From positions 310,001 through 374,000 of the forward strand of contig FUZM01000002.1 in assembly GCA_900167925.1 (NCBI GenBank): a stretch of DNA of 64,000 nt, read 5' to 3'. A program made the position numbers and the translations under genes. This DNA comes from Bacteroidales bacterium WCE2008. Its GTDB lineage: Bacteria > Bacteroidota > Bacteroidia > Bacteroidales > UBA932. Below, piece by piece: positions 38,366 through 57,492 of this stretch (its first letter is position 1; each line of letters opens with the position of its first letter). The notes beneath the pieces were generated by a model that searched no databases, had not been told where the DNA came from, and worked only from the letters and a program-made list of their open reading frames with translations.

Positions 38366-39097
38366 TCAGCAATACAGACCTCCGTTTATTGAAATACATT
38401 CTCCGGTAATGTAAGAGCACTCCTTTGAAGCAAGGAAGCCGACTATCGCCGCAACCTCCGCGCAGGTGCCGAAGCGTCCTGCGGGGATGGTCTTCTTAAG
38501 CTCATTCTCGTCCAGCTCCGCAGTCATGTCAGAACTGATGAATCCAGGAGCTACCGCATTGACCATCACGTTCTTCCTTGCGACCTCCTGGGCAAGAGCC
38601 TTGGTAGCCGCGATAAGGCCACCCTTTGCGGCGGAGTAATTGACCTGCCCCGGAAGTCCCTTTACTCCCGAGAGCGAGGCAACATTGACTATCCTGCCGT
38701 ATTTATGGAGGATCATAGGCTGAAGGAGAGGTCTGGTGACATTATAGAAGCTGTCGAGGTCCGTCCTCAACACACTGTCCCACTCATCCTTTTCCAGCCA
38801 GATCATCAGGTTATCCTTGCGGATACCGGCATTGTTGACAAGTACTTCGATATAGTCCTCGGGATGGCCCTTCTGCCAGTCGAGGATAGCATTACCTGCC
38901 GAAGCTGCGTCAGAGATATCGAAAGGCATGAGTTCGGCATCTCCGCCGGCATTGCGGATCTCCGCCTGCACCTCCAGCGCGGCGGCCTGATTACTTTTAT
39001 AGTTGATCAGTATATCATATCCCATTTCTGCCAGCTTTATCGCCACTGCCCTGCCGATACCGCGGCTGGCTCCGGTAACTAATGCATACTTTTTCAT
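38366..39097 (-). CDS. FabG-like 3-oxoacyl-ACP reductase, polyene ketoreductase
   Basis: A 243-residue short-chain dehydrogenase that reduces the beta-keto group of the ACP-bound chain with NADPH in each polyene cycle. The cofactor motif is TGASRGIGRA at the N-terminus; NNAG is near residue 90; the catalytic Ser and Tyr-X3-Lys are in ASLSGVKGLPGQVNYSAAKGG. It is a single domain and full length for FabG. Its ATG overlaps the ammonia-lyase stop by 4 bases. It is the only ketoreductase in the operon, so it must serve all elongation steps. Confidence 0.93.
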   Translation of the reverse strand: MKKYALVTGASRGIGRAVAIKLAEMGYDILINYKSNQAAALEVQAEIRNAGGDAELMPFDISDAASAGNAILDWQKGHPEDYIEVLVNNAGIRKDNLMIWLEKDEWDSVLRTDLDSFYNVTRPLLQPMILHKYGRIVNVASLSGVKGLPGQVNYSAAKGGLIAATKALAQEVARKNVMVNAVAPGFISSDMTAELDENELKKTIPAGRFGTCAEVAAIVGFLASKECSYITGECISINGGLYC

Positions 39098-40602: not shown

Positions 40603-41930
40603 TATATATAACTATATAAATCTTTTCCAAGTATGGTTCCGGACGTTCTCAACGCGGACATCGCCACACCGAGCATCCCGTGCAGGCCTACGCTCTGTCC
40701 CGTAAGGAAAAGGTTCGCTTTCGGCGTCCTCGGGCTGAGTACCGTAACCAAAGGAGACTTCCAGTCCTTCCTGATTCCGAAAGCCCCGGCGCATCCGGTA
40801 AACTGCTTCCATGTAAGCGGAGACGACGAGAAGACCATTTCAATGCCCTCCCTCAGTCCGGGAATCCTGGATTCCGCAATGGAGAGACATCTCTCAGTAT
40901 TCTTTTCTTTCCAATCCCTGTAGTCGCCGTCCCTTTCGCACGGACAGTTCTCCACAGGTGCCATTATCTCGACGGTATCGGCGAATTCTCCGGACCTCGG
41001 AACGCCCATATGGATGGAGATTTCCCGGTCTATCGAAATGCTGTGATTGACATATCGCACTGTTCCAGGCTTCAGGCCGATAAAGACCGTAAATACCCCG
41101 TAGCTGTCCTTCAGCGACGATATCCTTCTGACATACGACGGTCTCATATCTTCGCAGAGAGCGACTGTAGCGGCGGGATGGATATCAGAGACTATGGTCC
41201 CGGCCTCATATTCACTGCCGTCGCTGCAGAAGACTGAGCTGCCGGCAATCCGGCTGACTCTCTTTCCCGTAAAGATAGAGCCGCCGTTCTCCCTGATTAT
41301 TCCGGCAAGCCTGCCGGTTATAAGCGCCGGGGCCCCTGCGAGCCTGTACGTCCCCCTGATGAAGGAATCGGTAATCCTTGCGTACTCATACAGCGAGAGC
41401 GACGAAAGGTCATTATCCATACGCAGCACCGCACCGGTAAGCACTTTGACGATCAGAGGATCCTTGAACGTGTCTTCAAGGAAAGCTCCGGCTGACTGAC
41501 CGAAGGCTTCAGGGATGCTGTCAGTCTCCAGCCTTCCGGTTATTTCCCGAATTCTGGCGACATAAGATTCTATGCCCGCTTTCTCCCCGGGGAAACGTCT
41601 TTCCAAATACTCCTTGAATGCATCATATCCGACCGGGATCATGAATGATTCCCCGTCTATCACGACTTCTTCGCAGATATCGGTCCGGTCCCATGGCAGC
41701 CCGTCCAGGCCGCTATAGTCCAGCAGTCGGCCGAGCAGGTCGTCGCTGCTGACCGATCCGACATAGTGTAATCCCGGAGTGAAGCTGAACCGTCCTCTGG
41801 AGAAAGACTGCATGGCTCCGCCGATTGCAGTCCCCTGCTCGAGTACGGTGACGGTCTTCCCTTCGCGGGACAGGATTGCCCCGCAGATAAGGCCGCCCAA
41901 GCCCGCTCCGATGATTATGACATCAGACAT
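40602..41930 (-). CDS. Phytoene-desaturase-like FAD-dependent oxidoreductase
   Basis: A 442-residue flavoprotein of the CrtI/retinol-saturase/amine-oxidase fold. The dinucleotide-binding motif is VIIIGAGLGGLICGAILSREG followed by VLEQG; a Pro/Gly-rich C-terminal FAD motif is NLFLTGQSVGLHGMLG. In the polyene operon it may act on the aryl ring or the polyene chain; its reaction is not known to me. It sits between the ammonia-lyase (1-base overlap) and a ketosynthase (8-base overlap), so it is certainly cotranscribed. Confidence 0.85.
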   Translation of the reverse strand: MSDVIIIGAGLGGLICGAILSREGKTVTVLEQGTAIGGAMQSFSRGRFSFTPGLHYVGSVSSDDLLGRLLDYSGLDGLPWDRTDICEEVVIDGESFMIPVGYDAFKEYLERRFPGEKAGIESYVARIREITGRLETDSIPEAFGQSAGAFLEDTFKDPLIVKVLTGAVLRMDNDLSSLSLYEYARITDSFIRGTYRLAGAPALITGRLAGIIRENGGSIFTGKRVSRIAGSSVFCSDGSEYEAGTIVSDIHPAATVALCEDMRPSYVRRISSLKDSYGVFTVFIGLKPGTVRYVNHSISIDREISIHMGVPRSGEFADTVEIMAPVENCPCERDGDYRDWKEKNTERCLSIAESRIPGLREGIEMVFSSSPLTWKQFTGCAGAFGIRKDWKSPLVTVLSPRTPKANLFLTGQSVGLHGMLGVAMSALRTSGTILGKDLYSYI

Positions 41931-43146
41931 TCCTGATAATGAGCGAAGAGTTGGTCCCTCCGAATCCGAAGGAGTTCGAGAGGAATACGTCGAAATGCTT
42001 CTGTATGGTCTCGGCCGGGATCAGCAGACGCGCCGAGTCCTCGTCAGGATTCTCGAAATTGAGGTTTCCGGCGATGAAGTCGTTCTTCATCATCAGAATT
42101 GAGTAGATCACCTCGCTGGCTCCGGCCATCCACATCTCGTGTCCGGTCTGTCCCTTGGTGCTGGTAATCTCTATCTTCCTGTCTCCGAAGACTTTATATA
42201 AAGCCCTTGCCTCATTGGCGTCGCCTACGCGGGTCGAGGTTGCATGTGCATTGACATAGCCGATACTGTCTATGTCAATCCCGGAGCGGCGTATCGCGAA
42301 TTCCAGGGATCTGGCCGGTCCGTCGACATTAGGAGTCGAGATATGCTCTCCGTTGGACGAGAATCCATATCCGATCACTTCCGCGAGGATAGGCGCGCCT
42401 CTCTTGACAGCCGACTCGTAGCTCTCGAGCACGACTGTCGCAGCACCACCGCTCGGGATAAGTCCGTCGCGGTCGCGGTCGAAAGGACGGCTGGCCTTTG
42501 CAGGCTCGTCTTCCCTGACAGAGAAGGCGGAAATGCCGTCGAATGAGCCTGTAGCTGCAGGATTGACCTCCTGGGCGCCTCCGCAGACAACGACATCCTG
42601 AAGCCCGTTCTGAATCAGCATGGCTCCCAGACCGATTGCATGGGATCCGCTGGCGCATGCCCCTGACACCGTGAGATTGATGCCTTTAAGGTGGAAAATG
42701 ACGCCGAGATTCATGGTCACCGTTGAGTTCATGGACTGGAATATAGCTCCGGATCCGCAGAGCATGGTATCCTTCTTCTCTACGATCTTCGAGATCGACT
42801 TATATACTGCGTCGGCCGTGCTGTCGTTGCCGTAGAGCAGGCCGACTTCATGGGAATCCAGCCAGTCCTGATCAAGTCCGGCCGATTTCAGGGCGTCCCT
42901 TGTTGCGCAATATGCATATTGAGCAGGTTCGGGCATATATATGCGCTGGTTCCTGGGGAGTTCCTGCTTCAGATCAGGCAGCGGGACAAACCCAGTAAGT
43001 CCGGAACGGAAGCCGAGCACTTTCCGTTCCGGATCCAATATGATTCCTGACTTGCCTTTGTATAAGGCGTCTTGTACTTCTTCAAGCGTCTGACCGAGAC
43101 AGGAATATATTCCCATGCCGGTTATGACGACACGTTTGATCTGCAT
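41923..43146 (-). CDS. Beta-ketoacyl-ACP synthase (FabF/APE type), complete active site
   Basis: A 407-residue type II ketosynthase extending the polyene by two carbons from malonyl-ACP. The full Cys-His-His set is visible: Cys near residue 163 (VSGACASGSHAIG), His near 301 (NAHATSTRVGD) and His near 337 (KGQTGHEMWMAGASE); the C-terminal SFGFGGTNSSLI loop is intact. It is one of three complete ketosynthases in the operon and the only one far from the other two, next to the flavoprotein and ammonia-lyase genes. Initiation from the aryl starter is a possible special role, unproven. Confidence 0.93.
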   Translation of the reverse strand: MQIKRVVITGMGIYSCLGQTLEEVQDALYKGKSGIILDPERKVLGFRSGLTGFVPLPDLKQELPRNQRIYMPEPAQYAYCATRDALKSAGLDQDWLDSHEVGLLYGNDSTADAVYKSISKIVEKKDTMLCGSGAIFQSMNSTVTMNLGVIFHLKGINLTVSGACASGSHAIGLGAMLIQNGLQDVVVCGGAQEVNPAATGSFDGISAFSVREDEPAKASRPFDRDRDGLIPSGGAATVVLESYESAVKRGAPILAEVIGYGFSSNGEHISTPNVDGPARSLEFAIRRSGIDIDSIGYVNAHATSTRVGDANEARALYKVFGDRKIEITSTKGQTGHEMWMAGASEVIYSILMMKNDFIAGNLNFENPDEDSARLLIPAETIQKHFDVFLSNSFGFGGTNSSLIIRNV

Positions 43147-46168: not shown

Positions 46169-47027
46169 AATCGTTTAACCATTTGATAAATTCCTTTTGC
46201 CACCCACCGGTCTCGGCAGTGTACTTTTTCCTGTCTGCGCCGAACCCATGTCCCCCGGACTTGAACCGGAGATATTTATGCGGGACCCTTTCTGCCGTCA
46301 AGGCGGAATCAAGGATTACACTGTTATGCCAGTCTACAGTAGGGTCATCTTCACAATTGAGCAGGAACACCGGAGGCATCGCGGGAGTTACGTGTTTTTC
46401 CATCGACAGCGAATCCTGAAGCGCCTGGTTCCCGGCGGCGTCTTCTCCGAGAAGCCCGCGACGGGAGCGCTTATGCACATAATTGTTGTTGGACATCGTA
46501 ACGACAGGATAGATAGCCGCGATGAAATCCGGTTTCAGCGACATGCTGCCGGAATCCACTCCGCATCCGGTAACATAATCGGTTTCCCCGAACGCTGCCG
46601 ACATCAAGGCCAGATGGCCGCCGGCAGAAAAGCCCATGACTCCGATATACTGGTCCCCGTTCCTGTCCCTTATGACCTGGATCGATCTCTGGAGGTCGCA
46701 TATCATGTCGGGGAAGCGTGATCCCCGTGCGACTCTGCGGAACCGCGTAATGAAATCAAATGTACCGGCAACCCTGTATTTCAGGACGTAGGCGTTGTAT
46801 CCCTCCGAAGACAGCCATTCGGCCACCTTGCTGCCCTCACCCTTCATGTCGTGCCAGAAATAGCTGCCCCCGGGGCAGATTATGATGGACCCTTTCGCCT
46901 GGCCGGCAGTCTTATACTCATTCAATACCACGTCCTCCTCCTTATGCGACGTCCCGTCCCAGATTCTTATCTGGGCGGATGTCTGCACAGAAAGCAGCAG
47001 CGATATGACTATAATCAGTCTGTTCAT
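46158..47027 (-). CDS. Exported alpha/beta-hydrolase esterase
   Basis: A 289-residue serine hydrolase with a signal peptide (about residues 1-18, QTSAQ). The oxyanion motif is CPGGSYFWHD; the nucleophile is in GFSAGGH; the acid is probably in CEDDPTVDW and the His in SGGHGFG. It resembles the BD-FAE/acetyl-xylan-esterase group usually found in polysaccharide loci. In this operon an exported esterase could remove or transfer acyl groups on the pigment lipid, but this is inference. It overlaps both neighbours (4 and 11 bases), so it is an integral member. Confidence 0.87.
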   Translation of the reverse strand: MNRLIIVISLLLSVQTSAQIRIWDGTSHKEEDVVLNEYKTAGQAKGSIIICPGGSYFWHDMKGEGSKVAEWLSSEGYNAYVLKYRVAGTFDFITRFRRVARGSRFPDMICDLQRSIQVIRDRNGDQYIGVMGFSAGGHLALMSAAFGETDYVTGCGVDSGSMSLKPDFIAAIYPVVTMSNNNYVHKRSRRGLLGEDAAGNQALQDSLSMEKHVTPAMPPVFLLNCEDDPTVDWHNSVILDSALTAERVPHKYLRFKSGGHGFGADRKKYTAETGGWQKEFIKWLNDYGY

Positions 47028-50000
47028 AACTCGATCACTTTTCCTTCGGCTTCAGCCGGAGCCTCCCCATTGACATGATGCAGATTGGAAGGCACTCCGA
47101 CGCATCTGCTGGCAGTCAGGAACTTGTCCTCGTCAGCCTCATAAGCAATAACTTCCGTTTCAGGATGGGTCAAAGCGAGCAGAAGCGCATAGGCGCCGTA
47201 ACCGGAGCCCTTGACAACCACCTTCTTTTCATGCATCCCGTCAATTTCCCCTATCTTTGTCCTCAGCACCTGCCGGCACTCCCTCATAGCCTCGTTTCCT
47301 TTGTAAAGATACTGATATTTTACATACTCGGCGTTATAGGAGGCAGTTTCTTTCTCACGGCGTATAGTCGAATATTCCTCGCAGAAAGAATGGCGCATAT
47401 TGCGAGTGAAAGCCATAAGATTGTCCCCCACCTGCTTCCAGTCTATTCTCTTGCCGACTTTAAGGCTGATATCCGCCTTCCTCAATATGAAATCCTTTTT
47501 CCTCAACGCATATCCGAAACCATGGATATACAGAGGCAGTATGTCGACCTGAAGTTCCCTCGCGGCAAGAAAGGCTCCGCGATGGAAGCGCTGGATATCG
47601 CACGTCTCGCTTCTGGTGCCCTCAGGGAAGATTCCTATCGAATAGCCCTTTCCTATAAGTTCGCGCATCCTCTCCAGATTGGCTTCCAGTCCGTCGGACG
47701 AAGGCAGGCAATCCGCCTTGTGGAGAAGATAACCGTAGAACGGGCTTTTCCATACCCAGTCGTTAGTTATCATCGCCAGCTTAGGATTCAGGGCGAGAAG
47801 GGCCAGTACATCGAAATGAGACTGATGGTTGCATACATATATGGCCGGTCTGGAGAAGTCTTCTCCGACGCTGTTGTCGACTGAATAATGGCATCCCGGA
47901 AGGAATCTGAGCGCAAGCTGGGCCGTCTTCTGCAGGACTCTGCGGTACTTTTCTTTCCTGGCTTCGGAATCTCCGCGGAGGAAATGGAAGAAAGTCCAGA
48001 CTGAAAGCACCAGCATCGCGACAAGGAACACGGCGAAGATATATACAGTAGCCAGGATATTGGAAATGGTAAGCGGCAGTCCGCTTTTCCTTCCGGTAAA
48101 GAATCTGAAAAGCAGAGGCGGGAGGTAATATGCCATCATCACGACTATGACCATACCGGCGATAGTCAGCTCAGCCAGAGATTTCATCGCAGGATGCTTC
48201 GCCACGATCAGGGCGCCTATGCCTATGAACATGATCAGGGCCGAGAGAGCCACGGCATTCTTGAATGAGTGCAGAATCTTCTTCCCGGTCGCGTATTCAT
48301 GCATCAGGCCCTCGGTCATGAATATGGTATAGTCGTCCCCCTGGCCGAAAATGAATGACGCCAGTATGACATTGACCACATTGAACTGCCAGCCGAAAAG
48401 ATTCATGGTACCCAGAATCCATATCCAGCCCACGGCGAGCGGCAGGAAGGAAATCAGCGTCAGTCCCAGGGAGCCGAAAGACAGCCACAGGAATACGAAT
48501 ACGATAAGGCTGCATATAAGCCCTATACGGTCGAAATCTCCTGAAAGCTGCTCCTGGAAAGAATATGAGAGATCGGAACTGCTGAAGCAGAAGGCCCCCT
48601 CAGGAAGGCCGGCTCTGAGCCTGTCCTTGCAGTCCTCCACATCAGTCGCGTCCAGATAACTTACGATCTTGACATCATTCCCGTCGTCGAGGTACATGCT
48701 TCTGCCGACAGACTTCAGCAGGACGTCGAAATACCCGGCAGGCTGCACATCCCAATCTCTTAGCACAGTCTCCCGGAACGGATTGAAGGCCGTACCTGCG
48801 AATCCTTCTTTCCCGGCGGCCTTGTCCATCTCCTCGAGCACATCCCCGTGACGGCCCCAAAATACTCTCCACATACGGAGTTTCTCTTTCTGGGCAGACA
48901 TCGACGGCACGAACGTGGCAATGCTCCTCGCCCCGTCCAGACCGATAGCCTCGCAGGCCTGAAGGGCAGACTCGGCATCATTTCCCGAGGCTACCACATA
49001 TATCGACTCGCCGGCGCTTCCGGAATTGCCTTCCATTATTGCGAATCCCCTGCGCTGGTCTTCCGTCATGTAATTGATATTATGCATGTCGGTATCGAAA
49101 CCGACTTTTCTGCCCATGAAGAAGAATACGCAGCTTACGGCGACAAAAACGCAGAACACGGCGCAGCGCCACTTCCGGGAGAGGTTGATGTTCCTGTCGA
49201 AATCGAGTTTTATAGTCCCCCTGCGTTCCGTTGTCCCGGACACGAATACAGGCAGGAAGAACAGCACGAAAAGAATGGTCCCGACAAGCATCATGGCCCC
49301 GACGAAGCCGAAATCCTTTAGGGCATCAGCCTTCATCAGCATCAGGGACAGGAATGCGCCTACAGTAGTTATGTTTCCGACCAGCAGCGGATTGACCTGC
49401 TCCGAGAGAGCCTTGCGCCTGTCCGGCTGGTACTTCAGATGGTCTATATAATGCAGCGGATAATTGACGGCGATTCCGATAATCATACAGCCGATGCCGA
49501 GAATGATTATCGAGATGCTGCTCTTGAAAGCTGCGATGATTCCGATTGCCATTACCGCTCCGGCGGCGATAGATGCGAGAATCCACAAGATATCGCTGAG
49601 TCTCCGGTAGCTGAACCAAAGTACCAGGGATATGAGGATTCCGGCCACCAGCAGGGCAAGGATACTGTCCTTCTTGATTCTGGACGCATTCTCCACGGCG
49701 ACTTCAGGTCCTCCGGTCGAGAATACGGAGACCTCGGGATAAAGGTCCATGACCTTAGCCTTGACCTCATCCAGAATCTCCACCAGACCGGCATTACGGT
49801 CGGATTCCGAAGCCCCGAACGGCGAACGGAAAAAGACGACGCCCAGCCCGTCTTCCGTGAATATGAGTCCGTCCTCAGTGCTGAATCCGCTCTCCGGGGC
49901 CATTTCCCTCAGCCTCAGCAGGACGGGAGAGAACAGCTTCAGAGGATCCGAGCGCATATACTCCGACTCGATCTTCGACGAGAAAGAATACTGCGACGCG

Positions 50001-50461
50001 CGGTTCCCGGCCATGGCTCCGGCAATAAAACCGGGCTCCGACAGAAGCGAATCCATACGCTCATAATCGGCTTCATTCAGGAAATATGGCCAGTTGGAGC
50101 GGACGAAACCGAAGACTTCGCCGACTCCGACATCTTCCCCGCTCAAGCTTATGTCTTCGACGATTCCCGTCGTATCGGTCTCTGCCCAGATGTCCCGGAA
50201 GGCGTACATGGCATCGGCGACGTCATCTCTTGACTCTCCTTCGAAGAACACTGTCAGCATATCCTGCGTCCCAAGTCTGGAATAGACTTCCGAGTACATG
50301 CGGCTCTGCTCATTCTGAGGCAGGAATGACGAGATGTCTTCATCATATTCCATCCTGAGCGCCGAGATCACGCAGAGCGCCAGCAGCGCCACAACCAGCG
50401 CCGCCGCAAGACTCTTACGGGAGGAAAGATAGTCATGTATGTCCAGTATCAGTCTTTTCAT
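47024..50461 (-). CDS. MMPL/RND exporter fused to a PlsC acyltransferase and a partial Rossmann domain
   Basis: A 1145-residue fusion. Residues 1 to about 800 are an RND/MMPL lipid exporter with two six-helix bundles and two periplasmic loops (DEDISSFLPQNEQSRMYSEV after TM1). Residues about 820-1020 are a PlsC-type acyltransferase with CNHQSHFDVLAL (HX4D near 877) and FPEGTRSE near 945. The last 70 residues look like the start of a methyltransferase-type Rossmann fold (KKVVVKGSGYGAYALLL, VIAYEADEDKF). This would couple lipid attachment and export. ATG 50461 overlaps the glycosyltransferase stop by 4 bases; an open frame 20 codons further up is ignored. Confidence 0.9.
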   Translation of the reverse strand: MKRLILDIHDYLSSRKSLAAALVVALLALCVISALRMEYDEDISSFLPQNEQSRMYSEVYSRLGTQDMLTVFFEGESRDDVADAMYAFRDIWAETDTTGIVEDISLSGEDVGVGEVFGFVRSNWPYFLNEADYERMDSLLSEPGFIAGAMAGNRASQYSFSSKIESEYMRSDPLKLFSPVLLRLREMAPESGFSTEDGLIFTEDGLGVVFFRSPFGASESDRNAGLVEILDEVKAKVMDLYPEVSVFSTGGPEVAVENASRIKKDSILALLVAGILISLVLWFSYRRLSDILWILASIAAGAVMAIGIIAAFKSSISIIILGIGCMIIGIAVNYPLHYIDHLKYQPDRRKALSEQVNPLLVGNITTVGAFLSLMLMKADALKDFGFVGAMMLVGTILFVLFFLPVFVSGTTERRGTIKLDFDRNINLSRKWRCAVFCVFVAVSCVFFFMGRKVGFDTDMHNINYMTEDQRRGFAIMEGNSGSAGESIYVVASGNDAESALQACEAIGLDGARSIATFVPSMSAQKEKLRMWRVFWGRHGDVLEEMDKAAGKEGFAGTAFNPFRETVLRDWDVQPAGYFDVLLKSVGRSMYLDDGNDVKIVSYLDATDVEDCKDRLRAGLPEGAFCFSSSDLSYSFQEQLSGDFDRIGLICSLIVFVFLWLSFGSLGLTLISFLPLAVGWIWILGTMNLFGWQFNVVNVILASFIFGQGDDYTIFMTEGLMHEYATGKKILHSFKNAVALSALIMFIGIGALIVAKHPAMKSLAELTIAGMVIVVMMAYYLPPLLFRFFTGRKSGLPLTISNILATVYIFAVFLVAMLVLSVWTFFHFLRGDSEARKEKYRRVLQKTAQLALRFLPGCHYSVDNSVGEDFSRPAIYVCNHQSHFDVLALLALNPKLAMITNDWVWKSPFYGYLLHKADCLPSSDGLEANLERMRELIGKGYSIGIFPEGTRSETCDIQRFHRGAFLAARELQVDILPLYIHGFGYALRKKDFILRKADISLKVGKRIDWKQVGDNLMAFTRNMRHSFCEEYSTIRREKETASYNAEYVKYQYLYKGNEAMRECRQVLRTKIGEIDGMHEKKVVVKGSGYGAYALLLALTHPETEVIAYEADEDKFLTASRCVGVPSNLHHVNGEAPAEAEGKVIEL

Positions 50462-51180
50462 CGCTTTACAATCTTGCGCATCAGCAGGCGCGGATATCCA
50501 TAGACCACGGCCAGCAGACACAGGATGACGTTGAGCACGCTGATCCTTGCGAAATCGGCGTATGGGCGGAAATGCGACACCCTGTCTTCAGGATAGCATA
50601 TCCTTATCGGCACGGAGTCTATCCGCACTCCTTTCCATGCCGACAGCACCAGCAGCAGCAATTCGGCCTCATATCTGGACGGGACCATCCATAGAGGAGG
50701 CAATGTCCCGAGAGAATAGATGCGGAAACCGCTCTGGGTATCCGGGACCCTTTCGCCGGTCTGCAGAGTAAACCAGAAATTCGAGAATCTGTTGGCGAAA
50801 GTATTGCCTGAAGGCATTCCTTCAGCGTTCAGATTCCGGCTTCCCACGACCAGCCTATCCTTTTCCGCATGGTCCAGAAGGGTCGGAATGTCTTCTGGGA
50901 AATGCTGCCCGTCGGCATCGATTGTCACGGCATAATCATATCCCAGCCCGGTCGCTTTCCGGAACCCGGTCTTGAGCGCATGCCCCTTTCCCCTGTTCTT
51001 TTCGTATGAGACGACAGTCACAGGCAGGCGGGAAAGGATTTCCGCCGTACCGTCGGTGCTGCCGTCGTTTACCACGATTACAGGCAGACCGGTAGCCAGG
51101 GCCCTTTCCACTACAGCGCCAACCGTCCCGCCATTGTTGAATGCGGGAATCAGAATGCATATATGAAGGTCATTACTCAA
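50458..51180 (-). CDS. Family 2 glycosyltransferase (DPM1-like) of the polyene operon
   Basis: A 240-residue GT2 enzyme resembling dolichol-phosphate mannose synthases. Motifs: ICILIPAFNNGGTVGAVVE, VIVVNDGSTDGTAEIL, VTIDADGQHFPEDI (metal site) and QSGFRIYS. A hydrophobic C-terminal helix (VLNVILCLLAVVYGYP) suggests membrane association. In aryl polyene clusters such an enzyme probably glycosylates a lipid or the polyene head. It overlaps the hotdog gene by 8 bases and the exporter gene by 4. Confidence 0.92.
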   Translation of the reverse strand: MSNDLHICILIPAFNNGGTVGAVVERALATGLPVIVVNDGSTDGTAEILSRLPVTVVSYEKNRGKGHALKTGFRKATGLGYDYAVTIDADGQHFPEDIPTLLDHAEKDRLVVGSRNLNAEGMPSGNTFANRFSNFWFTLQTGERVPDTQSGFRIYSLGTLPPLWMVPSRYEAELLLLVLSAWKGVRIDSVPIRICYPEDRVSHFRPYADFARISVLNVILCLLAVVYGYPRLLMRKIVKR

Positions 51181-51514
51181 GCGTAAAACTCATTTTTGCA
51201 TAGGTGACAGCCTCGTCGGAGACCGTCACTGAAATATCGCCCCCTTCCGGGACGACGGTAAAAACGGCTGTCTTCCCTTCCGCGGGAATGACAGGGGCGA
51301 GGAATCGTACATTCTTCGCCGTTTTCATGATCCCCTTGCCTACAGTCCTCTCCGCCAGTTCGATGGCGATCTGCAGGAGGCAGGCTCCGGGAGTTATGGG
51401 AAAGCCCGGGAAATGCGCTTTGTATATCCGGCTTCCGGGCAGGAATTCGATTTTGTAGACCTGTCCTTCACCGCATGATACGGAAACTATTTCATATAAA
51501 TCTCCCTGAAGCAT
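51173..51514 (-). CDS. FabZ-like hotdog protein retaining His but with Gln in place of the catalytic Glu
   Basis: A 113-residue single hotdog domain of the 3-hydroxyacyl-ACP dehydratase type. The central-helix motif reads HFPGFPITPGACLLQIAIELAE. Aligned residue by residue to E. coli FabZ (HFPGKPIFPGVLILE), the catalytic His is present but the position of the catalytic Glu is Gln. The other hotdog protein of this operon (55957-56382) has the Glu and lacks the His. The two may form one dehydratase, as reported for the paired dehydratases of proteobacterial aryl polyene systems. It overlaps the GT2 gene by 8 bases. Confidence 0.87.
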   Translation of the reverse strand: MLQGDLYEIVSVSCGEGQVYKIEFLPGSRIYKAHFPGFPITPGACLLQIAIELAERTVGKGIMKTAKNVRFLAPVIPAEGKTAVFTVVPEGGDISVTVSDEAVTYAKMSFTLE

Positions 51515-52032: not shown

Positions 52033-52382
52033 TTTGCAATCAATATACAACCCGACACTACCAGGAATACTCCGATCCACTGGGTCCAGGATACGGTTTC
52101 CTTAAAGATCATTATAGCGGCGAAAACACCGAGCACGTAACTCAGGCACGAAAGCGGATAAGCTATGCTGAACGGGAAATTCCTAAGTATATAGGCCCAC
52201 AGCACAGTCGCCGCGGCAAACGAAAGGCCGCATCCGAGATACCACCAGTTCGTCAGCTGAGCCTTGAAGAAACCCCAGGACCAGCTGAACGGTCCCGAGG
52301 CATTGAGCCCCAGCTTGAACAGAATCTGGCCGCCGCAGAGAAACAGGCTCTGCAGCAGCGAAAGCGGAATCAGTTTATACAT
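52029..52382 (-). CDS. Small EamA/SMR-like four-helix membrane protein
   Basis: A 117-residue inner-membrane protein with four TM helices (LLQSLFLCGGQILFKLGL, WWYLGCGLSFAAATVLWAYIL, FSIAYPLSCLSYVLGVFAAI, WTQWIGVFLVVSGCIL). It resembles half-size drug/metabolite transporters such as ArnE/ArnF-type subunits and would work as a dimer. In this operon a flippase for a lipid-linked sugar, partnering the DPM1-like glycosyltransferase, is plausible but unproven. It overlaps the ketosynthase-like gene by 13 bases and the LolA-like gene by 4. Confidence 0.84.
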   Translation of the reverse strand: MYKLIPLSLLQSLFLCGGQILFKLGLNASGPFSWSWGFFKAQLTNWWYLGCGLSFAAATVLWAYILRNFPFSIAYPLSCLSYVLGVFAAIMIFKETVSWTQWIGVFLVVSGCILIAK

Positions 52383-52939
52383 AACTCTGGCATTGTTAAT
52401 TCTCTTATAGAGCCTTCCGGATCGGCGGAAAGCACATAACTTATGGCAACACTCTCCCCTGCCCCGTCTTTGCAGAACAGCGGAGCCACCTCGTCAAATT
52501 TCCCTACGAGAGCCGTATCGATATCCCCGAGGGATATCTGCAGCCATGCATCCAGCAATGCGCTCTCAAGCGAAGCCCCGGTATGGGAATAAGTCGCATT
52601 GTAGCCGTGGCATCCCAGATGGATGGCTATCATGGAGCTGACCGTGTTGTGCGTGGACTGCATGAAACTGGTAGGACTCAAAGCCGCTTCGCTTACTCCG
52701 TAAAGGGCGCTCATATACTGTTCCGTATTGAGTATGCAGCCGTGGTCCGTAGCCGTCATGATTGCATCTACATTCTTCAGGCCGGCAACGGAAAGAGCCT
52801 CCACGGACGTCCAGATTGCATGTTTCAGCATCTTTCCCATACGTCTGGAAGCAATCGGAGACAATATGTTCCTGTAATCCGGCTCGGGGTCTCCGTTCCG
52901 GAATTCACATATAGCCTTAATGTAGACTTTTCTTCCCAT
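52370..52939 (-). CDS. Half-length ketosynthase-like protein without active-site Cys (chain-length-factor type)
   Basis: A 189-residue protein covering only the N-terminal thiolase-fold half of a ketosynthase, of the Ketoacyl-synt_2 type. The region SPTSFMQSTHNTVSSMIAIHLGCHGYNATYSHTGASLESAL aligns with the MNSTVTMNLGVIFHLKGINLTVSGACASGSHAIG of the full enzyme at 41923, but the Cys position is not Cys. In aryl polyene systems such proteins act as chain-length factors bound to a ketosynthase. Its ATG overlaps the stop of the ketosynthase gene at 52939 (TGATG), suggesting equal expression. A longer open frame extending upstream is a shadow inside that gene. Confidence 0.85.
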   Translation of the reverse strand: MGRKVYIKAICEFRNGDPEPDYRNILSPIASRRMGKMLKHAIWTSVEALSVAGLKNVDAIMTATDHGCILNTEQYMSALYGVSEAALSPTSFMQSTHNTVSSMIAIHLGCHGYNATYSHTGASLESALLDAWLQISLGDIDTALVGKFDEVAPLFCKDGAGESVAISYVLSADPEGSIRELTMPELCIN

Positions 52940-54090
52940 CAGTATTTTGATATTATAAGCGAAGTATCGTTTCCTCCGAAGCCGAAGGCATTGCACATCA
53001 CATGCTCTAGCTTTACCGTTCCCTTTCCCCTGTACGGAGTGATGCATTCCGGGTCCTGGGTCTTCCAGCCCGTCTGAGCAGGAATGAAAGAGTGATTCAG
53101 GGCAAGTATGCAGAAAACGGCCTCGATCGACCCCGAAGCGCTTGTAGTATGGCCGGTAAAGCATTTGGTGGAAGACACGGGAGGTACGTCCTCCCCGAAA
53201 ACCCGCCTTATCGCATGGCTCTCGGAAGCGTCGTTGTTAGGCGTTCCGGTACCGTGGGCATTGATATATCCGATATCGGAAGGACGCAATCCTGCCATCG
53301 ACAGAGCCTTCCCCATTGCCAGAAAAGCTCCCTCTCCTTCAGGGGAAGAAGCTGTCTGGTGGTAAGCATCGCAGGCATTGCCGAAACCGGACAAGACGGC
53401 GACAGGTCTTGCCTTTCTCGCAATTGCCGACTCCTCCGTCTCAAGCACCAGGAAACCTGCGCCCTCTCCCAGATTAAGGCCTGTACGGTCCTTGTCGAAA
53501 GGAGAGCACAGCTCCCTGCTGAGAATCATCAGAGAGTTGAATCCGTTCATATGGTAGTCGGTCAGGCATTCGCTTCCTCCGGCAATTACCCTGGTGCATA
53601 GCCCGCTCCTGAGCAGATTGGCCCCCAGGATTATGGCATTGGCAGCCGACGAGCATGCAGTCGAAAGAGTCGTCCTGAAACCTGTCGCGCCGGTATAGCG
53701 GGCGATATCGTCAGTAGAAGAGCCGCAGTCATGTTTCGGAGAGTACTCCGGGAACATCCTCTCGCTAAGGTCCATTCCTCCCACAGTAGTCCCGCCGATC
53801 AGCGGAATGCCGGAGGCGTCCTCTATCCCTGCCTGGGCCAGAGCTTCTCTTACCGCCTTTATTCCAAGGAGAGAAGTCCTGCTGATTTTCTCGCCGATTC
53901 CGAGTTCCGCAGCAAGTTCAGCGTCTGAAAGAGCGAATTCCCCGGACGGGAAATCCGAGAGCGAGGTCTTGAGATGGCGCAGAGTCCCGATACCGGAACG
54001 GGAAGCGATGAGAGACTCGAGAGTCCTATCCTTGTCCGATCCGATAGCGCTTACTACGCCGGCTCCTGTTATGACGATCCTGCCTGTCAC
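52939..54090 (-). CDS. Beta-ketoacyl-ACP synthase, complete active site
   Basis: A 383-residue type II ketosynthase. Cys near residue 146 (LSTACSSAANAI), His near 276 (NAHGTGTPNND) and His near 312 (KCFTGHTTSASGS) are all present, with NAFGFGGNDTSLI at the end. It is directly coupled to the half-length ketosynthase-like gene downstream (1-base overlap), which makes the two a probable KS:chain-length-factor pair for polyene extension. The acyl carrier protein gene upstream overlaps it by 4 bases. Confidence 0.94.
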   Translation of the reverse strand: MTGRIVITGAGVVSAIGSDKDRTLESLIASRSGIGTLRHLKTSLSDFPSGEFALSDAELAAELGIGEKISRTSLLGIKAVREALAQAGIEDASGIPLIGGTTVGGMDLSERMFPEYSPKHDCGSSTDDIARYTGATGFRTTLSTACSSAANAIILGANLLRSGLCTRVIAGGSECLTDYHMNGFNSLMILSRELCSPFDKDRTGLNLGEGAGFLVLETEESAIARKARPVAVLSGFGNACDAYHQTASSPEGEGAFLAMGKALSMAGLRPSDIGYINAHGTGTPNNDASESHAIRRVFGEDVPPVSSTKCFTGHTTSASGSIEAVFCILALNHSFIPAQTGWKTQDPECITPYRGKGTVKLEHVMCNAFGFGGNDTSLIISKY

Positions 54091-54347
54091 TTCTTTCTGT
54101 TTTCAGCAACGTATTTTGCCATTACGGCGAAACTCTGGAAGACTTTCTTTCCATCTGCCGGAGAAGCGATATGGATTCCATAATTCTTCTCCAGAAGCAC
54201 TATAAGCTCCAGGACATCGATAGAATCAAGGCCCAGGCCCTGGTCGCCGAACAGCGGCGCATGGTCGTCGATATCTTCCGGAGTCATTCCTTCAAGGTTC
54301 AACGCCTCAATCACTTTCAGTTTAATCTCATTGATCAGTTCTTCCAT
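54087..54347 (-). CDS. Acyl carrier protein
   Basis: An 86-residue acyl carrier protein of four helices. The phosphopantetheine attachment Ser is in GLDSIDVLELIV. It carries the growing polyene or the malonyl unit between ketosynthase, reductase and dehydratase. It is one of two carriers in the operon (the other at 57250), which may separate starter from extender or chain roles. Its start overlaps the preceding gene by 20 bases. Confidence 0.95.
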   Translation of the reverse strand: MEELINEIKLKVIEALNLEGMTPEDIDDHAPLFGDQGLGLDSIDVLELIVLLEKNYGIHIASPADGKKVFQSFAVMAKYVAENRKK

Positions 54348-54879
54348 AATATATTTTCTTGATTATTTCACTGTCAAATCCTTCGCCATCCCGGTCCACA
54401 AGCCAGATCACTGCCTCGAACCCGATTTCCGAAGGACAATCTATCCATCCGCAGATGACAGACCGTGTCTCCTCATCCATGAACGCCTCTTCCACTGTCG
54501 CAAATATACGGTCTGCATCGAATCCGTCTGTCACATAAGCCGAAGTTTCTCCGGCATATTTATTCCTTATCGCAATTTCCCCGGTCACTATATTCGGCAA
54601 TGTATACACAAATAATGCTGGACTCGGGAAATCTTGTACCGTTTTCTGGAAATTTCCGTCATTCACCAGGGACCCGGACCTGCTGAACATGATTACGGCC
54701 CTGTCTTTCCTCGGTTCGAACCGCCCCTGCTCATCTTTCACCAGCATCTCCACCCCGAGCAGTCCAAGCCTGGAGAGTATATCCATCTTGAAGAACTTCG
54801 GATACTCCATCTTGAGCGAACGGTACAAAGCCGTAAGATCCGTTCCGGAATCTATCGATATGTATTTCAGTAGTCTCAT
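54328..54879 (-). CDS. Second half-length ketosynthase-like protein without active-site Cys
   Basis: A 183-residue protein not named by any family I can recall with certainty. The segment SPALFVYTLPNIVTGEIAIRNKYAGETSAYVTDGFDAD lines up with SPTSFMQSTHNTVSSMIAIHLGCHGYNATYSHTGASLES of the protein at 52370 (SP..F.....N.V...IAI.....G....Y...G), so both derive from the N-terminal half of a ketosynthase. There is no Cys at the active-site position. It starts within the ATGA overlap with the ketosynthase at 54876, the same arrangement as the other pair. A longer upstream frame is a shadow of that ketosynthase. Confidence 0.75.
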   Translation of the reverse strand: MRLLKYISIDSGTDLTALYRSLKMEYPKFFKMDILSRLGLLGVEMLVKDEQGRFEPRKDRAVIMFSRSGSLVNDGNFQKTVQDFPSPALFVYTLPNIVTGEIAIRNKYAGETSAYVTDGFDADRIFATVEEAFMDEETRSVICGWIDCPSEIGFEAVIWLVDRDGEGFDSEIIKKIYYGRTDQ

Positions 54880-55964
54880 TCCAGCCCTCCTTTTCTGAAC
54901 AGGACAGCACCGTTGACTCCGCCGAAACCTGACAGCAGCTTGATGAACGAAGTCCCGGAAGTCTTGGCAAGAGTGGCGTTGACGTTGATCGGATGAGTGA
55001 CTCCGAGCTGGCCGAAGCCCTTTGTCGGAAGGATCACTCCCCTGTCGCAGGCCATCATCGAAAGTGCCGATTCGAGAATGCCGGCAGCCCCCATCGTATG
55101 ACCGAAATACCCTTTGAGAGCATTTACAGGAACATTCTGGAGCCCGGCCCTCTCCAGGGCGAACGATTCCATCTCGTCGTTGTACAGGGTTGCGGTCCCA
55201 TGGACATTGACAAACGCCAGCTCGCTGACGTCGGCTTTCCGGAGGACATACCGGAGAGCGTTGAAACTGCCTTCTCCGGTCCTGGACGGCCCGGAAATAT
55301 GGTTCGCATCGTTGCGGACCGCGCCGTCGACGATCTCCCATCCGCCCTCGTGTCCTATGATCATGGCCGCAGACGACTCTCCCAGATTCAGGCCGTCTCT
55401 GCCGGCGTCGAACGGACGGCACGGGGCCATGGACAAAGCCTTCAGCGACTGGAAGCCCGATACGATGAACCGGCTCTGGATTTCGGTTCCGATGACGACT
55501 ATATGGTCATAATCCCCGTGAAGAATCATTCTGCGGGCCTGGACTATCGCCGCCAGTCCCGAGATGCAGGCGTTGGAGACTACCAGCGGAGGGTTGGGAT
55601 TATTGAACGCCCGCGCTATCCTGACAGCCGAATGGGCCAGGGTGACATCTTCGCTGCCGATGGCCTCTATGTTTCCTTTGATCGAAGAAAGCACGAAGCC
55701 GACTCTGCCGGAATCAGGACGGATGCCGGCGGCTTCTATGGCCTTTCTGGCAGCCTCGATCGAGACAGTCTCGAAGAGGTTGTAGCCAGGCTCCCTGTAT
55801 TTTTCCCTGTCAAGCAATGAGGCCACGAACGGCTCTTTGCAGCCGAACGTGCCGTCATGACGGCAAAGCATGGTCCGCCCCTCCAGGATGGAGCTGAAGA
55901 CAGCCTCAGCCGTCTCCCCCAGCGGAGTGACCATACCATATGAAATGCATCCTGCTCTACTCAT
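54876..55964 (-). CDS. Beta-ketoacyl-ACP synthase, complete active site
   Basis: A 362-residue ketosynthase. Cys near residue 133 (VSNACISGLAAI), His near 254 (NVHGTATLYND) and His near 288 (KGYFGHTMGAAGI) are present; the C-terminal loop reads LSGFGGVNGAVLF. It is shorter at the N-terminus than FabF and starts MSRAGCISYGMVTPLGE. Coupling to the half-length ketosynthase-like gene downstream (4-base overlap) suggests a second ketosynthase heterodimer. It overlaps the hotdog gene upstream by 8 bases. Confidence 0.92.
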   Translation of the reverse strand: MSRAGCISYGMVTPLGETAEAVFSSILEGRTMLCRHDGTFGCKEPFVASLLDREKYREPGYNLFETVSIEAARKAIEAAGIRPDSGRVGFVLSSIKGNIEAIGSEDVTLAHSAVRIARAFNNPNPPLVVSNACISGLAAIVQARRMILHGDYDHIVVIGTEIQSRFIVSGFQSLKALSMAPCRPFDAGRDGLNLGESSAAMIIGHEGGWEIVDGAVRNDANHISGPSRTGEGSFNALRYVLRKADVSELAFVNVHGTATLYNDEMESFALERAGLQNVPVNALKGYFGHTMGAAGILESALSMMACDRGVILPTKGFGQLGVTHPINVNATLAKTSGTSFIKLLSGFGGVNGAVLFRKGGLE

Positions 55965-56382: not shown

Positions 56383-57257
56383 TATTTCCAGAAATCATAA
56401 AAATTATACCACTGGTCCGGATATTTCCGGGCTATCTTTTCAAGCGAAGCGGCATAGCTGTCGGCAAGGAACTGGATCTTATTCTCCTTTCCCGTGTATT
56501 CCGGGAGAGCCTCCACATAGACCTTGTACCTTGACATCCCGGTCTTGAGGGAATACGCAGCTATCACGGGGATTTCCCTTACGGCCGCAAGCTTGAACGG
56601 CCCCAGAGGGAATCTGGCGTTCTCTCCCATGAAAGGACATGATATCGTCCTTCCGGAATCCGTCGAACGGTCTCCGCTGATGCTTACGATCTCCCCGCGG
56701 GAAAGAGCGTCGTTCATCAGGAAAATATGGGACATGTCCCCGGATATCGGGAGGACCTTCACGTTAGTGCGTCCGAAGACCTTGGAACGGTTGCTTTTGA
56801 TCGTATCCGTCTCGCCTCCGAAGACGAGAGCGTTGACCGTCTTTCCGCTGCTGAGGGTATATCCTACCATCTCGAAGTTGCCGACATGGGCCGTAAGCAT
56901 GATGAAGCCGGATTCCTTCGCGCAGAGTCCGTCGAAGATGTCCCGTCCTTCCACTTCTACCTTGAAGTTCTTGCCCCCATATGCGGCAAACCTGTCAAGC
57001 ACTACCATTCCCAGCTCGAATTCGTTCTTATAGACGTGCAGGAAAGAGCTTACAGGCCCCTTGCCTATACGCTTCCGGAAGAACCTGTAGGAGGCTCCGA
57101 ATCCCGGAGCGAACATCATGTAGAAAGGGATCACAAGGCCCATAAGTCCGTACAGAAGCCATAGCGGGAACACCCTGAACAAAGCGATCAGAGATCGCTG
57201 CATCCAAGGAGTTCCGTCAGTCTTGCCCTGCCAGGCCTTATGTCCGGTCTCAGCCAA
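56382..57257 (-). CDS. LpxL/HtrB-like lipid acyltransferase
   Basis: A 291-residue membrane-associated acyltransferase of the lipid A late-acylation family. It has an N-terminal hydrophobic helix (LWLLYGLMGLVIPFYMMF), the HX4E motif in TAHVGNFEM, GDRSTDSGR, and the C-terminal YPDQWYNFYDFW seen in LpxL proteins. In aryl polyene clusters this enzyme type probably transfers an ACP-bound chain to a lipid acceptor. It starts inside the end of the acyl carrier gene (8-base overlap), consistent with using that carrier as donor. Confidence 0.92.
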   Translation of the reverse strand: MAETGHKAWQGKTDGTPWMQRSLIALFRVFPLWLLYGLMGLVIPFYMMFAPGFGASYRFFRKRIGKGPVSSFLHVYKNEFELGMVVLDRFAAYGGKNFKVEVEGRDIFDGLCAKESGFIMLTAHVGNFEMVGYTLSSGKTVNALVFGGETDTIKSNRSKVFGRTNVKVLPISGDMSHIFLMNDALSRGEIVSISGDRSTDSGRTISCPFMGENARFPLGPFKLAAVREIPVIAAYSLKTGMSRYKVYVEALPEYTGKENKIQFLADSYAASLEKIARKYPDQWYNFYDFWK

Positions 57258-57492
57258 TTTTCGTCTCTATATGTTTGCAGAAATCATCGAATGTCTTGAT
57301 CTCGCGGAAGTCTTCCGGCCTCATCTTGAAGCCGAAGGCCTGGTCGACATAGACAACCACGTCCACGATCTCCAGGCTGTCTATACCGAGATCTTCCTTG
57401 AGGCGGGCGTCGCCGGAGATCTTGGATCCGTCGATTTCGAGTTCTTCTGTCAGGAAACCCGTTACTGTTTCTTGAATCTCTTGAATAGTCAT
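57250..57492 (-). CDS. Acyl carrier protein
   Basis: An 80-residue acyl carrier protein with the phosphopantetheine Ser in GIDSLEIVDVVVYVDQ. It is acidic and helical as expected. It differs clearly from the carrier at 54087 (GLDSIDVLE), so the two are not a recent duplication. Position near the methyltransferase and lipid acyltransferase suggests that it handles the starter unit or the finished chain, which is inference. Confidence 0.95.
   Translation of the reverse strand: MTIQEIQETVTGFLTEELEIDGSKISGDARLKEDLGIDSLEIVDVVVYVDQAFGFKMRPEDFREIKTFDDFCKHIETKIG

What the first reader, a model, noticed from the sequence alone, without database searches (positions are those of the whole stretch)
52370..54879. 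Two half-length, cysteine-less ketosynthase-like proteins, each coupled to a complete ketosynthase
The proteins at 52370-52939 (189 aa) and 54328-54879 (183 aa) align with each other and with the N-terminal half of a ketosynthase, lack the active-site Cys, and each begins within the stop codon of a full ketosynthase gene (1- and 4-base overlaps). One resembles the known chain-length-factor type; the other is more diverged. This predicts two separate KS:half-KS complexes, perhaps for chain start and chain extension, plus the third ketosynthase at 41923 without such a partner.
Basis: partly seen in the sequence, partly recalled or inferred. Interest (0 to 1): 0.6.

Follow-up and report, generated by a model that had tools for sequence, protein, structure and literature searches.

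The report
Second half-size partner for pigment-making ketosynthase
This gut-type Bacteroidota gene cluster for a yellow aryl-polyene pigment encodes two chain-building enzymes that each have their own inactive half-size partner: one pair is already known from other bacteria, while the second, very diverged pair appears to be a standard but largely unrecognised part of these clusters.

Summary
Both genes are on the minus strand. P0001 (52370-52939) is ApeC, the known half-size chain-length factor (CLF) of aryl-polyene (APE) synthases, next to ApeO (52939-54090). P0002 (54328-54879) matches no Pfam family. AlphaFold gives a confident single thiolase half-fold (pLDDT 92); its best PDB matches are the solved ApeC half-CLFs and the ishigamide CLF. 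A remote homologue passes the PF00109 cut-off, so it is a true ketosynthase N-half without active-site Cys. Its partner is the adjacent ketosynthase P0004 (catalytic Cys-His-His-Lys invariant). In 80 related loci, P0004/P0002 homologues are one natural fusion protein in 20, ApeO/ApeC in 29, no cross-fusion was found, and the third ketosynthase (ApeR) is never fused to either half. In 395 Bacteroidota genomes the 34 with a strong P0002 match are exactly the 34 with a strong ApeC match. So the Bacteroidota (flexirubin-type) APE machinery carries a second, ancient KS:half-CLF pair that the E. coli APE cluster lacks. The split of roles (start versus extension) is untested. Most likely it is a second condensing heterodimer: a new variant of a known kind. 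Physical binding was not shown.

The parts
52370..52939 (-). P0001, ApeC-type half-length chain-length factor, 189 aa
   Evidence: PF13723 E 4.8e-12, PF00109; PDB sequence hits 7f28_A and 6qsp_B; fused to ApeO in 29 of 80 related loci
52939..54090 (-). P0003, ApeO-type ketosynthase, 383 aa (GTG start), active-site Cys in STACSSA
   Evidence: PF00109 + PF02801; PDB hits include ApeO 6qsp_A E 6e-57; C146, H279, K309, H314 invariant in family A5
54087..54347 (-). ACP2, acyl carrier protein between the two pairs, 86 aa
   Evidence: PF00550; natural fusion of the P0002 homologue with this ACP in 6 loci
54328..54879 (-). P0002, second, diverged half-ketosynthase (CLF-like), 183 aa
   Evidence: AlphaFold pLDDT 92.4, pTM 0.88; Foldseek best 6qsp_B ApeC E 2.6e-7; VIA Z 14.1; no Pfam; remote homologue passes PF00109 cut-off
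54876..55964 (-). P0004 ('KS4'), ketosynthase partner of P0002, 362 aa, Cys in NACISG
   Evidence: PF00109 + PF02801; C133, H255, K284, H289 invariant in family A6; fused with the P0002 type in 20 of 80 loci; own clade, support 100/100
41923..43146 (-). P0005, ApeR-type (FabB-like) ketosynthase without half-partner, 407 aa
   Evidence: PF00109 + PF02801, best NCBIfam beta-ketoacyl-ACP synthase I; ApeR fused to either half in 0 of 50
57250..57492 (-). ACP1, 80 aa
   Evidence: PF00550
55957..56382 (-). hotdog-type dehydratase candidate (DH1), 141 aa
   Evidence: position and length only; no Pfam match; inference
51173..51514 (-). hotdog-type dehydratase candidate (DH2, ApeI/ApeP-like), 113 aa
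   Evidence: position and length only; no Pfam match; inference
38366..39097 (-). ketoreductase (ApeQ-like), 243 aa
   Evidence: PF00106/PF13561
39094..40602 (-). aromatic amino acid ammonia-lyase (starter supply), 502 aa
   Evidence: PF00221 E 6e-161; counterpart FlxA of Chitinophaga pinensis is a tyrosine ammonia-lyase (PMC3992019)
44873..46168 (-). AMP-binding ligase (starter activation), 431 aa
   Evidence: PF00501
57497..58591 (-). O-methyltransferase, 364 aa
   Evidence: PF00891, PF21212

Best explanation
The window holds a Bacteroidota aryl-polyene cluster of the flexirubin type with two ketosynthase:half-CLF heterodimers and one stand-alone ketosynthase. ApeO:ApeC (P0003:P0001) is the known pair. 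P0004:P0002 is a second, ancient pair. P0004 does the chemistry (decarboxylative Claisen condensation by Cys-His-His-Lys). P0002 is a catalytically dead copy of a KS N-terminal thiolase half that takes the place of the second KS subunit: it would complete the dimer interface, close one wall of P0004's acyl pocket and offer part of the carrier-protein docking patch (its invariant KMD motif aligns with the Lys69 region of E. coli FabF). Shown here: fold, missing Cys, intact KS catalytic residues, strict partner choice in natural fusions, strict co-occurrence with ApeC. Inferred: heterodimer geometry, ACP docking, pocket role. Which condensation the second pair performs is a guess: first condensation(s) on the aromatic starter (about 0.35), a late extension window (about 0.3), or general extension redundant with ApeO:ApeC (about 0.2).
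For: AlphaFold model of P0002 pLDDT 92.4; best PDB folds are ApeC 6qsp_B (Foldseek E 2.6e-7, Z 14.1, 167 aligned, 3.6 A), AbApeC 7f28_C and Iga12 6kxd/6kxe_B, though FabFs at Z 13.7 are tied. Natural fusions KS4=P0002-type in 20 loci, ApeO=ApeC in 29, no cross-fusion, ApeR 0 of 50. Fused and split forms intermix (at least 3 changes on the KS4 tree, 11 on the ApeO tree). Same 34 of 395 genomes carry both half-KS types. KS4 residues C133, H255, K284, H289 invariant. Family-wide invariants include P27 K31 M32 D33 D74 P87 F90 V91 Y92 T93 L94 E101 W145. Outside Bacteroidales the order KS4-P0002 type-ACP-ApeO-CLF is kept in Aureispira and Persicobacter. A half-size CLF with one thiolase fold is a solved precedent (PMC8358021).
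Against: No complex was modelled or measured. A fused polypeptide could also be a KS4 homodimer with two appended halves. hhalign of the P0002 family against the ApeC family is weak (E 0.0035, probability 9%) and null against ApeO and KS4. Six loci fuse the P0002 type to the ACP rather than to KS4, so it may have a second role. The AlphaFold model of a natural fusion is only fair (pLDDT 81.5, pTM 0.67) and no interdomain confidence was returned.
Confidence: 0.8

Rival explanations
1. P0002 is an ACP-tethering or delivery subunit: a dead KS half that holds ACP2 near KS4, while KS4 itself works as a homodimer.
For: P0002-type=ACP2 fusions in 6 of 80 loci; the ACP gene lies directly downstream in most loci; KS4 has a complete KS domain.
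Against: KS4 fusions are three times as frequent (20); the closest folds are CLFs that sit on the dimer face of their KS (PMC8358021); conserved residues cover the segment that precedes and forms the KS dimer strand.
Confidence: 0.1
2. The second pair does no polyene extension but makes or attaches another acyl part of the final lipid (anchor chain or a dialkylresorcinol-like moiety).
For: The cluster also holds acyltransferases and an AMP ligase; the role of the pair is unmeasured.
Against: Strict co-occurrence with ApeC (34 of 34) and a constant place beside ACP2 and ApeO; no DarB above cut-off in this genome, so the pair cannot depend on a resorcinol.
Confidence: 0.12
3. P0002 is a decaying remnant of a full CLF with no function left.
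For: It is short and diverged; the ApeC lineage does show stepwise loss of the C-terminal half.
Against: Present in every sampled ApeC-bearing Bacteroidota genome, with 15 invariant columns among 52 sequences, and kept in frame in 20 fusions.
Confidence: 0.02

Closest known systems
ApeO:ApeC of Xenorhabdus doucetiae (6QSP) and Acinetobacter baumannii (7F28)
   Same: KS paired with a half-size CLF that has one thiolase fold; P0001/P0003 are its counterparts; P0002's model matches ApeC best
   Different: P0002 belongs to a separate, diverged family without a Pfam model, paired with a different KS (P0004), and exists beside ApeC in the same cluster
Ishigamide KS:CLF Iga11:Iga12 (6KXD, 6KXE, 6KXF)
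   Same: Polyene-making type II KS:CLF; Iga12 is the best credible sequence hit of the P0002 profile and a top fold match
   Different: Iga12 is a full-length CLF; actinobacterial; no second pair known to me
Flexirubin cluster of Chitinophaga pinensis (flxA-flxY)
   Same: Ammonia-lyase, ligase, several KSs (FlxC, I, L, N, O are listed), LolA, glycosyltransferase, exporter (PMC3992019)
   Different: No DarB above cut-off in this genome; which Flx proteins equal P0004/P0002 could not be checked, because the tables are in the supplement
Actinorhodin KS:CLF (1TQY)
   Same: Dead KS copy as heterodimer partner
   Different: Full-length CLF; P0002 and P0001 keep only about half
E. coli CFT073 APE cluster
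   Same: ApeC, ApeO and ApeR present
   Different: Only these three ketoacyl synthases; no P0004/P0002 pair (PMC8253772)

Membership tests
ApeC-type half-size CLF (P0001) | KS N-terminal half only, one thiolase fold | tested here: met
   PF13723/PF00109 N-half match, 189 aa, no C-half; the fold itself was not predicted for P0001
ApeC-type half-size CLF (P0001) | No active-site Cys, and Arg pair (AbApeC Arg30-Arg31) for ACP | tested here: met
   R32 R33 invariant, no Cys at the site; role of the Arg pair from PMC8358021
ApeC-type half-size CLF (P0001) | Heterodimer with ApeO | not testable with these tools
   Indirect: ApeO=ApeC fusions in 29 loci
ApeC family (P0002 as a member) | Match to the ApeC domain model PF13723 or orthology to ApeC | tested here: not met
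   No PF13723 match; hhalign probability 9%; ApeC is present beside it as a separate gene
CLF / dead KS partner in general (P0002) | KS-type thiolase half-fold | tested here: met
CLF / dead KS partner in general (P0002) | Active-site Cys absent | tested here: met
   Site falls at D118/G119 in the profile-to-KS alignment; variable in the family
CLF / dead KS partner in general (P0002) | Dedicated, catalytically intact KS partner | tested here: met
   Fusions only with KS4; catalytic residues invariant
CLF / dead KS partner in general (P0002) | Physical heterodimer and effect on chain length | not testable with these tools
   No complex prediction or assay available
KSQ-type decarboxylase partner | Gln in place of the Cys | tested here: not met
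   D118/G119 at the site, variable in family
Flexirubin cluster | Aromatic ammonia-lyase and AMP ligase for 4-coumarate starter | tested here: met
   PF00221 and PF00501; substrate specificity not tested
Flexirubin cluster | DarA/DarB for the dialkylresorcinol | tested here: not met
   No DarB above the NF053539 cut-off in the genome, which is 98.8% complete; DarA not searched

The most novel reading that the evidence does not exclude
Bacteroidota aryl-polyene synthases are a machine with three condensing enzymes in which a second, previously undescribed KS:half-CLF heterodimer (P0004:P0002, sometimes covalently joined to each other or to ACP2) performs a dedicated step, such as the first condensation on the 4-coumaroyl starter, that proteobacterial APE systems, with only ApeO:ApeC and ApeR, do not have.
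Probability: 0.35. Interest if true: 0.6.

Novelty: new variant of a known kind. Interest (0 to 1): 0.45.

Why it matters
APE clusters are described as the most abundant biosynthetic cluster family, and the Bacteroidota branch occurs in gut bacteria. Chain length in type II systems is set by KS partners. A second half-size partner that no Pfam model recognises in Bacteroidales, yet is present wherever ApeC is in the sampled Bacteroidota, means that models built from the proteobacterial enzymes miss one of the condensing pairs. The natural fusions give ready-made single-chain constructs for structures and assays. The series of full, eroded and half-length ApeC proteins shows how half a ketosynthase can be discarded.

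Tried and rejected
Direct pairwise and Pfam/NCBIfam comparison of P0002 gave nothing, so sequence homology had to come from profiles, a remote homologue and structure. The top profile hit in the PDB, 8g8i_A (a chain named C3HR3_9r_shift4, matched as repeated short low-scoring stretches), was rejected as a chance composite. hhalign of the P0002 family against ApeO and KS4 families failed. An AlphaFold model of a natural fusion (L060) gave only a fair score and no interdomain measure, so no interface claim rests on it. The P0004:P0002 complex itself was not predicted: the tool folds single unchanged chains only. A first cross-fusion filter listed the 20 KS4 fusions wrongly as cross-fusions because KS4 also hits ApeO; the corrected count is. 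A paper on PDB 9s5h (nearest solved chain to P0003 and to full-length ApeC) was sought and not found.

Full report
OBSERVATION. All genes concerned lie on the minus strand. P0001 (52370-52939, 189 aa) follows P0003 (52939-54090, 383 aa) with a 1-base overlap. P0002 (54328-54879, 183 aa) follows P0004 (54876-55964, 362 aa) with a 4-base overlap. P0003, P0004 and P0005 (41923-43146) are complete ketosynthases with both Pfam halves. P0001 matches the KS N-half models PF13723 and PF00109. P0002 matches no Pfam or NCBIfam model, nor does its family above chance. The two short proteins align with each other only weakly (24% over 111 aa).

P0002 IS A KETOSYNTHASE N-HALF. Four lines agree. (a) A profile of 22 family members finds the ishigamide CLF Iga12 (6kxd_B, E 0.0066) and, lower, FabFs and the actinorhodin CLF, aligned over the N-terminal half. 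(b) A 52-member profile finds, in other Bacteroidota, 419-465 aa proteins of KS length at E 8e-6 to 8e-4, always over one N-terminal-length stretch. (c) A plasmid-borne homologue in Aureispira anguillae (31% identity to P0002, E 1e-20) passes the PF00109 gathering score (31.0 vs 20.8 bits). (d) AlphaFold with 52 natural sequences gives pLDDT 92.4 and pTM 0.88; the best folds in the PDB are the solved half-CLF ApeC of X. doucetiae (6qsp_B, Foldseek E 2.6e-7), ApeC of A. baumannii (7f28_C) and Iga12. On the DALI-like scale these are Z 14.1, 13.9 and 14.0 over 167-177 residues. Ordinary FabFs at Z 13.7 are tied, so the fold says 'KS N-half' firmly and 'ApeC-like' only by rank. The active-site Cys position falls at D118/G119 (alignment) and is not conserved in the family.

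WHO PARTNERS WHOM. In 80 loci from public genomes the gene order dehydratase candidate-KS4-P0002 type-ACP-ApeO-ApeC is widely kept. In 20 loci the P0004 and P0002 homologues are one open frame of about 560-750 aa; in 29 loci ApeO and ApeC are one frame. Never is KS4 fused to ApeC or ApeO to the P0002 type, and ApeR is fused to neither in 50 cases. Fused and split states change at least 3 times on the KS4 tree and 11 times on a quick ApeO tree. In split loci an ATG of the P0002 type overlaps the KS4 stop by 4 or 7 bases in 41 of 56 (my count). In six loci the P0002 type is fused to the following ACP instead. In a sample of 395 Bacteroidota genomes, 34 have a strong P0002-type match and 34 a strong ApeC match, and they are the same 34. 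The genomes are related and the genes share an operon, so this is not 34 independent events, but no exception was seen.

THE KETOSYNTHASES. KS4, ApeO and ApeR form three separate, well supported clades (100/100, 98/96, 100/100); KS4 groups with ApeO rather than ApeR only weakly (92/70) on a long branch. Catalytic Cys, two His and Lys are invariant in KS4 (C133, H255, H289, K284) and ApeO (C146, H279, H314, K309). A separate housekeeping FabF lies elsewhere in the genome.

MECHANISM. [quoted passage not shown] By analogy P0002 would sit as the second subunit of P0004. Family-wide invariant residues K31-M32-D33 align with the FabF segment around Lys69 (alignment made by eye on the KMD motif); Lys65, Arg68 and Lys69 of FabF bind the carrier protein (PMC7138838). 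The conserved block around FPSPxxFVYTLPNIVTGEIAIRNK aligns with the KS segment before the active-site strand. These roles are inferred from alignment; no interface was modelled.

WHAT STEP. The E. coli APE cluster has only ApeC, ApeO and ApeR (PMC8253772). The flexirubin cluster of C. pinensis lists five putative ketoacyl synthases (PMC3992019), so extra genes were seen before, but no paper found in the held library describes the second half-CLF; the key 2019 JACS paper on APE biosynthesis did not appear in these searches and was read only through papers that cite it. Here the starter route is an aromatic ammonia-lyase plus an AMP ligase. The extra pair might take the aromatic starter, or extend late intermediates; nothing tested here decides.

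HISTORY OF THE HALF PROTEINS. Most ApeC homologues in other Bacteroidota are 300-390 aa and align over most of their length with ApeO (hhalign E 2e-9), so they are full-length CLFs. The window's clade has half-length forms, and its sister lineages have 262-267 aa forms with an eroded C-half. Long and short forms need at least 3 changes on the ApeC tree. The window's short ApeC is therefore most simply a local loss of the C-terminal half. No full-length form of the P0002 type was seen.

VERDICT. A correct and useful reading by the first stage. P0001 is a known kind. P0002 with P0004 is a new variant of that kind: a second KS:half-CLF pair, apparently standard in Bacteroidota APE clusters. Binding and role remain to be shown.

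Noticed in passing
L034:7690-8481, L036:11997-12782, L038:12002-12802, L065:11985-13019: ApeC homologues range from full-length (about 345 aa) through eroded C-half (about 265 aa) to half-length: an apparent stepwise loss of the second thiolase half, with at least 3 long/short changes on the tree.
   Followed up: partly
L041:4200-5231, L042, L050, L051, L052, L062: Natural fusion of the P0002-type half-ketosynthase with the following acyl carrier protein.
   Followed up: partly
window 54328-54879, residue W145: An invariant Trp in the P0002 family lies just before the position where ApeC has its Asp-Glu (E150 invariant); it may shape the pocket floor differently. Alignment only.
   Followed up: no
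window 47024-50521: 1165 aa protein joining an MMPL-type exporter and a PlsC-type acyltransferase, with a further C-terminal stretch of about 150 residues that was not assigned.
   Followed up: no
L172 (Aureispira anguillae plasmid pAUEa), L173 (Persicobacter psychrovividus plasmid pPP6): APE clusters carried on plasmids, with the same KS4-half-KS-ACP-ApeO-CLF order.
   Followed up: partly
G353, G369, G400, G491: Four sampled Bacteroidota genomes carry two strong full-length ApeC homologues each.
   Followed up: no
PDB 9s5h chains B and C: A two-sequence KS entry is the nearest solved chain to P0003 and to full-length Bacteroidota ApeC; its source could not be found here.
   Followed up: partly
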